NCBI RefSeq assembly: GCF_008086545.1
Contig: NZ_CP043026.1
Span: 434,001 to 498,000 of the forward strand
Reading direction: 5' to 3'
DNA: 64,000 nucleotides
Source of the DNA: Spiroplasma chinense
GTDB taxonomy: Bacteria; Bacillota_I; Bacilli_A; Mycoplasmatales; Mycoplasmataceae
Part shown: one piece after another, positions 3,292-7,259 of the stretch
Numbering within the stretch: position 1 is the first letter of the stretch
Layout of the letters: each line of letters starts with the position of its first letter
Program-made: the position numbers and the translations under genes
Notes under the pieces: generated by a model
Told to the model about the DNA's origin: nothing
The model's input: the letters and a program-made list of their open reading frames with translations, nothing else
Databases searched by the model: none

Positions 3292-3672
3292 GTGTTAGGA
3301 ATAAAAAAAGCAGGACAAATAACATCAATAGTAATTAATGGTGTAAGTTTGTTTTTGTTATTGATTACTTTGCTGTTTTTGACAACAACAGATATGGTGT
3401 TAGAAGTTGCAAAAGAAAGTATGATTGATGAAGATATAGCTTTAATAGAAGAAGTTGCTAAAATAGCAGTAACTATTTTAGTAGTATTATTCGTTATTTC
3501 AATGATAATTCAAACAATAAGTGTCGTTTTGAACTCATTGGCATTAGCTAAGAATAATGATAAAATAGGTCTTGTAGGTGCTATATTTGCATTACTTAGT
3601 TTAAGTTCTATAATTGGTGGAATTCTAAGTATTGTAGGTATTAGTAACTCTAAAAAAACAGGAACGGAGTAA
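3292..3672 (+). CDS. Small membrane protein, first of a tandem pair
   Basis: A 126-residue protein of unknown function. It has three or four hydrophobic segments (about residues 10-32, 58-82, 92-118), with an acidic stretch DEDIALIEE after the first. It starts at GTG, chosen because GAGGTG lies 6-11 bases upstream and the overlapping ATG frame stops at once. The next gene is a paralogue with the same plan: both begin KKxGxITSIV(I/L)N and both end with a glycine-rich helix GGIL(S/T)I(V/I)G. The shared architecture and 5-base spacing imply a local duplication and co-transcription. It resembles the small DUF4064-type membrane proteins only in general plan. Confidence 0.7.
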   Translation: MLGIKKAGQITSIVINGVSLFLLLITLLFLTTTDMVLEVAKESMIDEDIALIEEVAKIAVTILVVLFVISMIIQTISVVLNSLALAKNNDKIGLVGAIFALLSLSSIIGGILSIVGISNSKKTGTE

Positions 3673-3677
3673 TATTA

Positions 3678-4037
3678 ATGAATGGATTAAAAAAAGGTGG
3701 GCTTATAACATCTATAGTCTTAAACGCGATCGGAGGTTGTGCCTTTGGGGTTTGTGGCTTTATATTTTTATTATTTTTTGCCCTTTCCTCAGATGTCGGG
3801 AAAGCTACAGATGAAGAAACCGGCTCATCATTTTTCCTAGTAGAAGCTCTTATTTTCATTATAATGACAATAATGCAAATAGTTTCTATTGTATTTAGTT
3901 CAATTGCCCTAAAAAAAGGTGATGATACAAAATTTGGATTAACAGCAGGAGTGCTAGGAATCGTAAGTTTTTGTGGTTTAATTGGTGGAATTTTAACAAT
4001 AATTGGTAATTCAACATCAAATAGTAATGAATACTAA
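3678..4037 (+). CDS. Small membrane protein, second of a tandem pair
   Basis: A 119-residue paralogue of the preceding gene, with the same N-terminal motif (GLKKGGLITSIVLNAIGG), a short acidic loop (DVGKATDEETGS) and the C-terminal GLIGGILTIIGNS helix. Three to four membrane segments are visible. Its ribosome binding site (CGGAG) overlaps the stop codon of the first copy, so the two are probably translationally coupled. No catalytic motif is present and the function is unknown. Divergence between the copies is high, so the duplication is old. Confidence 0.7.
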   Translation: MNGLKKGGLITSIVLNAIGGCAFGVCGFIFLLFFALSSDVGKATDEETGSSFFLVEALIFIIMTIMQIVSIVFSSIALKKGDDTKFGLTAGVLGIVSFCGLIGGILTIIGNSTSNSNEY

Positions 4038-4045
4038 ATTATAAA

Positions 4046-4073
4046 CAAAAAAAGGAGATTTATCTCCTTTTTT
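4046..4073. terminator. Bidirectional intrinsic terminator
   Basis: AAAAAAGGAGAT / ATCTCCTTTTTT hairpin with A and T runs on both sides. It closes the paralogue pair on the plus strand and the candidate small RNA on the minus strand. Confidence 0.8.
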
Positions 4074-4148
4074 CTGTAGCTTAGCGCCACTTTCTGTCGT
4101 ATGTCATATCCTATAAGATAGACAACCCAGTCAATTAATAACCGATTA
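4046..4148 (-). ncRNA. Candidate structured small RNA
   Basis: Read on the minus strand, this stretch of about 100 bases has its own promoter, no open reading frame of note, two local stem-loops and a terminator. The first stem is GUCUAUC, loop UUAUAG, GAUA-U-GAC (7 bp with one bulge). The second is GUGGC, loop GCUAA, GCUAC (5 bp with one G-U pair). The terminator hairpin follows 8 bases later. It does not match what I know of 4.5S RNA, tmRNA, RNase P RNA or 6S RNA. No gene follows on this strand that it could lead into, so it is a free-standing transcript rather than a riboswitch. Function unknown. Confidence 0.5.
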
Positions 4149-4153
4149 CTTTT

Positions 4154-4181
4154 ATAATACCATGTTTATATTAGAATGCAA
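4154..4181 (-). promoter_or_regulatory. Promoter of the candidate small RNA
   Basis: On the minus strand: -35 TTGCAT (4181-4176), 16-base spacer, -10 TATTAT (4159-4154). Transcription would start near 4147. Confidence 0.5.
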
Positions 4182-4313
4182 TTATTTTGAACAAAAAAAG
4201 AGATTAAACCATTGTTATTTTTTTTATTACCAAATAACACAATTTTAAAATGTGTAAAAATAAAGACTAAAATGTATTAAAATTATATGGTAAGGGCAAA
4301 TAGGGTGATTTTT

Positions 4314-7259
4314 GTGAACAATTATGAAGACTTTGTAGGTTTTCCTGTAGACGATAATGATTCTGATAGAACTAGGGCGTTTGAATTACAAAAAAAACAA
4401 AGAAGACCAGATTCAATTTCTTGAATAGTTTCTGCTTTAATACTGTTTTTTTTGAGCGTAATTTCTTTGGGAAGAATAACAGTTGTAGGACAAGTTTTAG
4501 ATGATGTAATATTTACATTACCATTTGGGTGATTTAAATACTTTCTATATCTACTATTTTTTGTCATAGACTTTGCAATCTATTTTGGAATAAAAATTAA
4601 ACCTAAAAAAAGATTTATATTTATGATTTTTGTAACATGAATTGTCTTTTGTTGAATAATTTCATCAATTTTATTTATTGTAGCCCATCATATGAAAAGT
4701 CAATCATTTGTTGTTGACAAAGTATTTTCTAAAACTATTTTTGTAGACACTGTTGAATCTTATTTAACTCATTGAAAAAGACATTCTTTCTTTGGAGATG
4801 AAAATAGAAATCTTTTAATATCAAGTAGAGAAAGTTACTTTACAATGTGAGCTGGTGGAGGTTTATTTGGGACTGTATTGGCTGGTATAAGTTCATATAC
4901 CACAATTTATGGAGGTCTTGTTATAGCTTTATTTGGTTTTTATTTAAACATGATTTGAATATTTACTGGAGATCCATTTTACTTATTAAAACCAAAAGGT
5001 AAAAGAAAAGGTAAAAGACTTAGAATTTTATCTCTTAAATCTAAAAATCAATTTAATATTGGTGAAAATAAAAAAAGATCTAGAAAAGGTAAGTTCTTTA
5101 AATTAATTCAATTTGATGAAAATACAACATTGGATAATTTTGATGTTATTTCATCAATTAGAGAATCTGATATGACAATTGAATTACCAAGTTTTATGAA
5201 GGTGCAAGAACATAATGTCTATGCACCAGTGGATGCTGGTTTTTATGATGATAACTTTGATATACCATTTGAAAACAGAAAACCAGATCCTTTTAAAGAC
5301 GTAAAGTTGGAAGAAGAGAAGTTCTTTGGAATTGGAAATAAAGGTTATGAAAATATAGGTTATCAAAGTTCTGAACCAGTATTTTATCAAAACGAAGAAA
5401 CTGAAATAGCCCCAAATGAGCAATTTGAAGCTATGTATTTACCGAGAAGAGAACAAAAACCTGAAAATGAAGTACCTGCAAATTCCTTATATGGTAAAGA
5501 AGTAAGTCAAGATGAGGTTCGTAAAAAACTTGAAAGAGAAGCTCGTATCACTCCACATGGTGGAAATGGTAGAACAAGAGAAATACTTGGGGAAATGAAA
5601 TCATCTAATTTTGACAATACAAGTCAATTATCTTTAGAAGAATTTATAAGTTCTTCTAATTCTGAAATTAATCAAAGAAATGAAAATGTTCAAAAAGCAA
5701 GTGATTATGTTTCACCAATGGAAGATATCTTTACAAAAACTGTTGTAAATGGTTATGGAAGATTTACTCCAAGAAACCAAAATACTCAAACTATTGAATT
5801 GAATCATAATAATGCAACAGAAAAAGAATTGTATGTAAATAATAATTATGTTTTACCTGACATTGAAATATTGAATAAAGATTTAAATAATCAAAAAGAG
5901 TTTGAAAAACTTAAAGAAATGGCTCAGTTGAAAGCAAATTCAATTGATGCAACATTTGAACAATTTGGAGTTAAAGCCAAAGTTGTAAATATGAATATTG
6001 GACCTAGTGTTACAAAATTTGAAATTCAACCAAGTCCAGGTACTAAAGTAAATTCAATTACAAGTTTAGAAAACGACTTGAAACTTGCATTAGCAAATCA
6101 ACACGTTAGAATTGAAGCGCCAATTCAAGGAAAAGCTGCAGTTGGTATAGAAGTACCAAATGATAATCCTGTAATAGTGCCAATTAGAAGTGTTATTCAA
6201 AATGTACCAATTCAAAAATTAAACTCAAAACTTTTATTTGCAATTGGTAAAACTGTAACAGGAGAAATGTTATTTGGTGAATTAGATAAAGCACCCCACT
6301 TGTTAGTTGCAGGTTCAACTGGTAGTGGAAAATCAGTTATGATTAATGGTATTATTTCATCAATCTTGATGAGAGCAAAACCTCATGAAGTTAAATTCTT
6401 AATGATCGACCCTAAAAAAGTTGAATTATCTACTTATGCAAATATTCCTCACCTTTTAACACCAGTTATTAGTGATATGAATCTTGCAAATAATGCATTA
6501 AAAAAAGTAATTAATGAAATGGATAGAAGATATGTTTTATTCACAAAAAATGGTGTAAAAAACATTGAAACTTATAATGCAAAAATAAGAGATGATAAGA
6601 AGAAACTTCCTTTCTATGTAATTATTATTGATGAGTTAGCAGACCTTATGATGACAGCAAACAAAAAAGATGTTGAAGAATCAATTACAAGACTTACTCA
6701 AATGGCAAGAGCTGCTGGTATTCATTTAATTGTAGCTACCCAAAGACCTTCAACTGATGTCTTAACAGGAGTTATTAAATCAAATATACCTACTAGAATA
6801 AGTTTTGCAGTAGCTTCTGCAATTGACTCAAGAACTATTCTAGATTCTTCTGGAGCTGAAAAATTAATCGGAAGAGGAGACTTACTTTACTTACCACCTG
6901 GTAGTTCTAGTTTAATGAGAGCACAAGGGGTATTTATAAGTGATGATGAAATCGAAAGATTAGTGGATCACTGTTCAAAACAACAAAGACAAATGTTTGA
7001 TGAAGAATTCATGCAAATGGAAAATGATAATGATAATGGATATGGTGACTTTGATGAAAAAGATGAATTGTTTGAAGAAGTTAAAGATTACATAATCAGA
7101 GAACAAAAAGCATCAACAAGTTTAATTCAAAGAAAATTCAAAATCGGTTATAATAGAGCCGCAAGGATTATTGATGAATTAGAAGCTATGGGGGTTATTG
7201 GACCACAAAATAGCACTAAATCAAGAGATATCTATGTCAAAAAAGAAGAAATTTATTAA
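4314..7259 (+). CDS. ftsK: DNA translocase FtsK
   Basis: A 981-residue ATP-driven DNA pump that clears chromosome ends from the division site. The first 270 residues hold about four membrane helices and contain several TGA tryptophan codons, so the gene is much longer than a standard-code reading suggests. A long acidic, asparagine-rich linker follows, then the motor with Walker A GSTGSGKS (near residue 670), Walker B VIIIDELADLM and the ATQRPSTDVLTG segment. The C-terminal gamma domain is a winged helix (DYIIREQKASTSLIQRKF...RAARIIDELEAMGVIGP) that would read KOPS-like sequences. The start is GTG at 4314, preceded 5 bases upstream by AGGGTGA. Upstream spacing and a following terminator make it a single-gene unit. 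Confidence 0.95.

What the first reader, a model, noticed from the sequence alone, without database searches (positions are those of the whole stretch)
4046..4181. Unassigned structured small RNA opposite an intergenic region
The minus strand carries a good -35/-10 pair, two stem-loops (GUCUAUC...GAUA-U-GAC and GUGGC...GCUAC) and a strong terminator in about 100 bases, with no downstream gene to control in cis. It does not match standard house-keeping RNAs that I know. Plausible roles are a trans-acting regulator or an unrecognised lineage RNA.
Basis: partly seen in the sequence, partly recalled or inferred. Interest (0 to 1): 0.72.

Follow-up and report, generated by a model that had tools for sequence, protein, structure and literature searches.

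The report
Orphan RNA of a toxin-antitoxin-like family

Summary
It folds far better than shuffles (z -5.3). It is one of six homologous RNAs: three in this genome (window, 958 kb, 86 kb) and three in another species of the genus (G018). Structure is supported by covariation: 13 of 25 pairs change on both sides, 0/500 shuffles reach this. Stem-loop 2 has unrelated sequences in different members but always the same shape (lower stem, one bulged 3' base, upper stem). Rfam has no match. All three G018 RNAs are followed, just past the terminator, by a paralogous small ORF (one open for 91 aa, two decayed); the 86-kb copy here is followed by a likely remnant. Promoter-RNA-terminator-protein gene is the order of type III toxin-antitoxin and AbiF modules. 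The window and 958-kb copies have no such gene, yet their core stays 32-33/35 identical to the G018 homologue. Best reading: an orphan RNA antitoxin of a type III-like module (about 0.5). The protein's toxin nature is unproven: no Pfam, PDB or confident fold match. A tracrRNA reading was tested and is disfavoured.

The parts
4176..4181 (-). -35-like element TTGCAT (weak, 3/6)
   Evidence: sequence; aligned column for column with TTGACA of the G018 homologue
4154..4162 (-). extended -10 element TGGTATTAT
   Evidence: sequence; TGGTATTAT is present before all three RNA copies of this genome
4047..4150 (-). the RNA, about 103 nt; start predicted near 4149-4147, end in the T run
   Evidence: covariance-model hit 4151-4048, E 1.2e-21; z -5.3; ends not mapped experimentally
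4128..4144 (-). stem-loop 1, CGGUUA/UGACUG, followed by invariant GGU
   Evidence: covariation incl. one two-sided change (U-A to C-G) over six members
4103..4123 (-). stem-loop 2, the variable hairpin: GUC, UAUC, loop UUAUAG, GAUA, bulged U4106, GAC
   Evidence: 6 of 7 pairs with two-sided changes; the single 3' bulge is present in all six members
4096..4102 (-). conserved single-stranded AUACGAC linker
   Evidence: identical in window copy, 958-kb copy and G018 copy 1
4076..4090 (-). stem-loop 3, GUGGC-GCUAA-GCUAC, GNNRA-type pentaloop
   Evidence: 3 of 4 modelled pairs with two-sided changes, 100% of cells paired
4047..4074 (-). intrinsic terminator, also the terminator of the convergent + strand gene
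   Evidence: 3 of 8 pairs with two-sided changes

Best explanation
The window carries an orphan RNA antitoxin gene. SHOWN: a ~103-nt RNA gene (promoter, three stem-loops, terminator) belongs to a family of six RNAs with a constant frame (stem-loop 1 + GGU, GNNRA stem-loop 3, terminator) and a variable, bulged stem-loop 2; three sit in this genome and three in G018. SHOWN: in G018 each RNA is followed, just past its terminator, by a paralogous small ORF. LIKELY: the 86-kb copy of this genome has a decayed remnant of that ORF. INFERRED: the complete module works like a type III toxin-antitoxin or AbiF module. One promoter makes much RNA, occasional read-through of the terminator makes some mRNA for the small toxic protein (perhaps an RNase of the MazF/PemK kind), and the RNA binds and neutralises the protein, with stem-loop 2 setting which paralogue is recognised. 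INFERRED: the window copy lost, or never had, its toxin gene and is kept because it still neutralises related toxins that arrive on mobile DNA, or because the family has been reused for another trans role.
For: Family: model R1, built from three RNAs, found three more at 77.5, 50.2 and 41.5 bits, against at most 30.6 bits elsewhere in 119 genomes. Covariation: 13 of 25 pairs with two-sided changes, 24 cells, 0/500 shuffles; slid structures at most 3 pairs (hand-curated table). Module order: small ORFs after RNA copies 1, 2 and 3 of G018; protein-level scores 135 and 87 for the two decayed ones against shuffle maxima 50 and 43. 86-kb copy: downstream DNA matches G018 copies 2 and 3, 0/300 shuffles each. 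Constraint without a toxin gene: core 32-33/35 identical while the rest is 36-38/64, and 6-8 of 9 changed pairs stay paired. The arrangement matches type III TA (PMC5086642) and AbiF/RCd22, a 100-130-nt RNA with its own terminator before a toxin gene (PMC12373285). The genome also has a PemK-family ORF preceded by a hairpin-terminator stretch.
Against: The small protein matches nothing convincing in Pfam, NCBIfam or PADLOC or PDB sequences; profile comparison with PemK-like proteins gives no support (probability under 1%); fold models have pLDDT 46-50, too low to search. The RNA has no tandem repeats and no recognised pseudoknot. The G018 cassettes share upstream sequence, so their RNA-ORF linkage may be one event copied three times. 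The 86-kb remnant is weak at the protein level (15/300 shuffles). No intact relative of the protein was found in this genome. Alignment A4 was fitted to the structure, which inflates pair counts.
Confidence: 0.5

Rival explanations
1. A stand-alone trans-acting small RNA family, acting on mRNA or on a protein other than a toxin; the small ORF hitch-hiked in the G018 cassette duplication.
For: Two of three copies in this genome have no ORF, yet the core is strongly conserved; the G018 cassettes share upstream DNA, so linkage may be one event; stem-loop 2 core plus AUACGAC is more conserved than pairing alone requires.
Against: The 86-kb locus, at an unrelated site in another species, also has a likely ORF remnant; stem-loop 2 is unrelated in sequence between paralogues, odd for an mRNA-pairing seed; a BLAST of the RNA against the genome showed no long antisense target.
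Confidence: 0.27
2. A cis-acting leader or attenuator of the small gene (terminator read-through control by a ligand or by translation), left behind as a relic in the window.
For: RNA and terminator directly precede the ORF in G018.
Against: Orphan copies keep promoter, core and terminator under constraint; the central hairpin changes sequence completely between paralogues, unlike a ligand-binding aptamer; no alternative anti-terminator pairing was seen in the window fold.
Confidence: 0.12
3. A diverged tracrRNA or other CRISPR-derived RNA: repeat/anti-repeat-like bulged hairpin, nexus-like stem-loop 3, terminator.
For: Stem-loop 2 of three related copies resembles the reverse complement of the G018 CRISPR repeat (p about 0.0005-0.005); CRISPR-repeat-like sequence lies upstream of G018 copy 2; the layout resembles Mollicutes tracrRNAs (PMC6882279).
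Against: No Cas9 in this genome; G018 has its own tracrRNA-like anti-repeat (score 56) beside cas9; the other three members show no anti-repeat match (p 0.19-0.39); the constant 5' stem-loop leaves no guide.
Confidence: 0.04
4. No functional RNA: a bidirectional terminator of the convergent gene plus a decaying relic.
For: The terminator also serves the + strand gene 3678-4037; no transcript data; the -35 is weak.
Against: Promoter, three stem-loops and terminator recur together at six sites, with covariation.
Confidence: 0.07

Closest known systems
AbiF / RCd22 module of Clostridioides difficile (PMC12373285)
   Same: Own promoter, a 100-130-nt non-coding RNA with a Rho-independent terminator directly before a protein gene; the RNA neutralises the protein in cis and in trans.
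   Different: The protein there is of the Abi_2/AbiD/F family, with two abiF RNA motifs; here Rfam finds no such motif and the protein has no family match. Function untested here.
Type III toxin-antitoxin systems ToxIN, CptIN, TenpIN, AbiQ (PMC5086642)
   Same: Order promoter-RNA-terminator-toxin gene; closely related toxins have related antitoxin RNAs.
   Different: Those antitoxins are tandem repeats of 34-50 nt forming pseudoknots; this RNA is one ~103-nt unit with three nested stem-loops and no repeats. No ToxN-family protein in 60 genomes of the family (that search rang in no control, so absence is not proven).
Type II tracrRNA / single-guide-like RNA (PMC6882279)
   Same: Bulged hairpin, nexus-like stem-loop, terminator.
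   Different: No Cas9 in this genome, no guide, no anti-repeat in three of six members.

Membership tests
Type III toxin-antitoxin | Rho-independent terminator between RNA gene and protein gene | tested here: met
   In G018 copies 1 and 3 and, decayed, copy 2; in the window itself the protein gene is missing
Type III toxin-antitoxin | Antitoxin RNA made of tandem repeats | tested here: not met
   The repeat finder: no direct repeats in the window RNA or the three G018 RNAs
Type III toxin-antitoxin | Toxin of the ToxN/CptN/TenpN (MazF-like) fold | tested here: inconclusive
   No Pfam/NCBIfam/PADLOC/PDB hit; fold models pLDDT 46-50; hhalign to PemK-like proteins under 1%
Type III toxin-antitoxin | RNA pseudoknot bound by the toxin | not testable with these tools
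   Only nested folds were predicted; binding needs an experiment
Type III toxin-antitoxin | Protein toxic, RNA neutralises it | not testable with these tools
   Needs an expression assay
abiF RNA | abiF RNA motifs | tested here: not met
   No Rfam match at gathering score, none listed below it
tracrRNA (type II CRISPR-Cas) | Cas9 in the genome | tested here: not met
   TIGR01865 and G018 Cas9 find nothing in G000, while 9 of 20 genomes of the genus have it
tracrRNA (type II CRISPR-Cas) | Anti-repeat complementary to a CRISPR repeat | tested here: inconclusive
   Weak match in three related copies, none in the other three
Known Rfam families | Score above gathering threshold | tested here: not met
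   Only RNase P and TPP in the window; none in L035 or L036

The most novel reading that the evidence does not exclude
A new class of RNA antitoxins: a single non-repetitive ~103-nt RNA with a constant scaffold and an interchangeable bulged hairpin that sets toxin specificity, paired with a new small toxin family, with orphan RNA copies kept as immunity against incoming modules.
Probability: 0.3. Interest if true: 0.8.

Novelty: new variant of a known kind. Interest (0 to 1): 0.55.

Why it matters
RNA antitoxins that act on proteins are known in few families, most of them built of tandem repeats. A small, non-repetitive RNA with a fixed scaffold and one exchangeable hairpin would be a second design, and the six natural variants would make RNA-protein specificity directly testable. 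Orphan antitoxin RNAs kept in a reduced genome would be evidence that such RNAs are useful without their toxin. Even without the antitoxin role, this is a covariation-supported RNA family absent from Rfam, in a group for which the literature searches here found no small-RNA study (not exhaustive).

Tried and rejected
MCS4/U6-like RNA of mycoplasmas: recalled from memory, no usable paper found, not pursued. Syntenic conservation before ftsK: none. Rfam below threshold: only terminator-driven chance hits. tracrRNA: pursued because G018's CRISPR repeat aligns with stem-loop 2, dropped when other members proved to have unrelated hairpins and this genome has no Cas9. Plasmid, phage, viral and species-genome collections: no relatives of RNA or protein; near genomes may be left out there. 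Weak model hits in other genomes: the best checked (L088, 38.8 bits) overlaps the end of an apparent coding region plus a terminator; L116 likewise. The stretch at L035 8141-8262 scores only 19.5 bits with all filters off: not a member. Fold search of the small protein was not run because the models are too poor.

Full report
WHAT IS THERE. On the minus strand between ftsK (4287-7259 +) and a small membrane-protein gene (3678-4037 +) lies an RNA gene. It has an extended -10 (TGGTATTAT, 4162-4154) with a weak -35 (TTGCAT, 4181-4176, spacing 16), three stem-loops (4144-4128, 4123-4103, 4090-4076) and a terminator (4074-4047) whose palindrome also ends the convergent + strand gene. The 105-nt RNA folds at -33.5 kcal/mol, z -5.3, no shuffle as good. 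Rfam finds only RNase P and a TPP riboswitch in the window.

A FAMILY OF SIX. BLAST of this genome found a paralogue at 958 kb, 88% over 72 nt, and a homologue in one of 119 relatives, G018. The 32-base core has two copies here and one in G018, none in the other 58 genomes of the family, and none for the reversed pattern. A covariance model from these three found three further members: two more in G018 (77.5 and 50.2 bits) and one at 86 kb in this genome (41.5 bits); the best other score in 119 genomes was 30.6. A rebuilt model gave no convincing members in 395 genomes of the class: of the weak hits, those examined in context are terminators beside apparent coding sequence. So the family is confined, among genomes searched, to two species of one genus.

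STRUCTURE. On the six sequences 97% of cells form standard pairs, 13 of 25 pairs have two-sided changes, and none of 500 shuffles or six slid structures comes near. With only the first three sequences the support was weak (23/500), so the claim rests on the three added members. The alignment was fitted to the model, which inflates counts; but the hand-curated table shows the point directly: stem-loop 2 has four different sequence types (GUC-UAUC, CGC-AAAAAC, GCU-ACAAGAA, ACU-UAACC and their partners), each with a lower stem, one bulged base on the 3' side and an upper stem. Stem-loop 1 with its GGU, the GNNRA pentaloop of stem-loop 3 and the terminator are the constant frame.

NEIGHBOURS OF THE RELATIVES. 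In G018 all three RNAs are followed, about 15-25 nt past the terminator, by a small ORF beginning like M-K-x-x-x-G-Q-I-W-x-G-Y. One is open for 91 aa; the second for 64 aa; the third is broken after about 15 residues. At 86 kb in this genome, the DNA just past the terminator matches that of G018 copies 2 and 3 (0/300 shuffles each), with the frame broken; at protein level the match alone is not significant (15/300), so I call this remnant likely, not shown. Neither the window copy nor the 958-kb copy has such a match. No other genome has a convincing relative of the protein.

MECHANISM. Promoter, structured RNA, terminator, small protein gene is the order of type III toxin-antitoxin systems (PMC5086642) and of the AbiF module, whose RNA is 100-130 nt and has its own terminator (PMC12373285). 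I infer that the RNA binds and neutralises the small protein, that the terminator keeps RNA in excess, and that stem-loop 2, the part that differs between paralogous cassettes, sets specificity. The window RNA would be an orphan antitoxin. In support, its core (stem-loop 2 and flanks) is 32-33/35 identical to the 958-kb and G018 copies although the rest is 36-38/64, and 6-8 of 9 changed pairs remain paired, so selection seems to act on it without a toxin gene. Recent transfer could also explain part of the identity.

LIMITS. That the small protein is a toxin is not shown. It matches no family, no solved structure by sequence, and its fold models are poor. Resemblance to MazF/PemK proteins (GQIW near the start, KKRPFLIL) is by eye; profile comparison does not support it. 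The RNA lacks the tandem repeats that define type III antitoxins, so I do not file it as a type III member; the claim is that it works like one. The G018 linkage may be a single event duplicated, since the cassettes share upstream DNA.

CRISPR LEAD. Stem-loop 2 of three copies resembles the anti-repeat of G018's CRISPR repeat. This genome has no Cas9, G018 has a proper anti-repeat beside its cas9, and the other members show no such match. I regard it as most likely chance, but the CRISPR-repeat-like sequence upstream of G018 copy 2 is not chance and is unexplained.

LOCATION. In most genomes of the genus whose upstream region was read, an RNase J-type gene directly precedes ftsK; here two small membrane-protein genes and the RNA lie between them, so the RNA is in an accessory insertion.

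Noticed in passing
L036:13386-13416 (-), G018: A 28-base stretch, 26 of 28 identical to the genome's own CRISPR repeat, alone upstream of RNA copy 2; a weaker one at about L036 9621-9670 (-). Solitary repeat-like units near toxin-antitoxin-like cassettes; unexplained.
   Followed up: partly
L141:1390-1930 (-) (this genome, 852 kb): A PemK/MazF-family ORF (PF02452, over cut-off) preceded by a hairpin-terminator stretch of about 65 nt, with no protein antitoxin gene seen next to it and a transposase downstream; possibly another RNA-toxin module.
   Followed up: partly
L035:8138-8284 (-) (this genome, 958 kb): Another structured stretch (z -3.4) with a similar terminator, just downstream of the 958-kb RNA copy; not a family member by the model (19.5 bits), no Rfam match. 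Unassigned.
   Followed up: partly
L046:8237-8332 (+), G018: Probable tracrRNA of the G018 type II CRISPR system, upstream of cas9, anti-repeat score 56.
   Followed up: partly
window 3292-4037 (+): Two small membrane-protein genes with weak DUF4064/claudin-like similarity lie between the RNase J-type gene and ftsK; absent at that site in most relatives read.
   Followed up: partly
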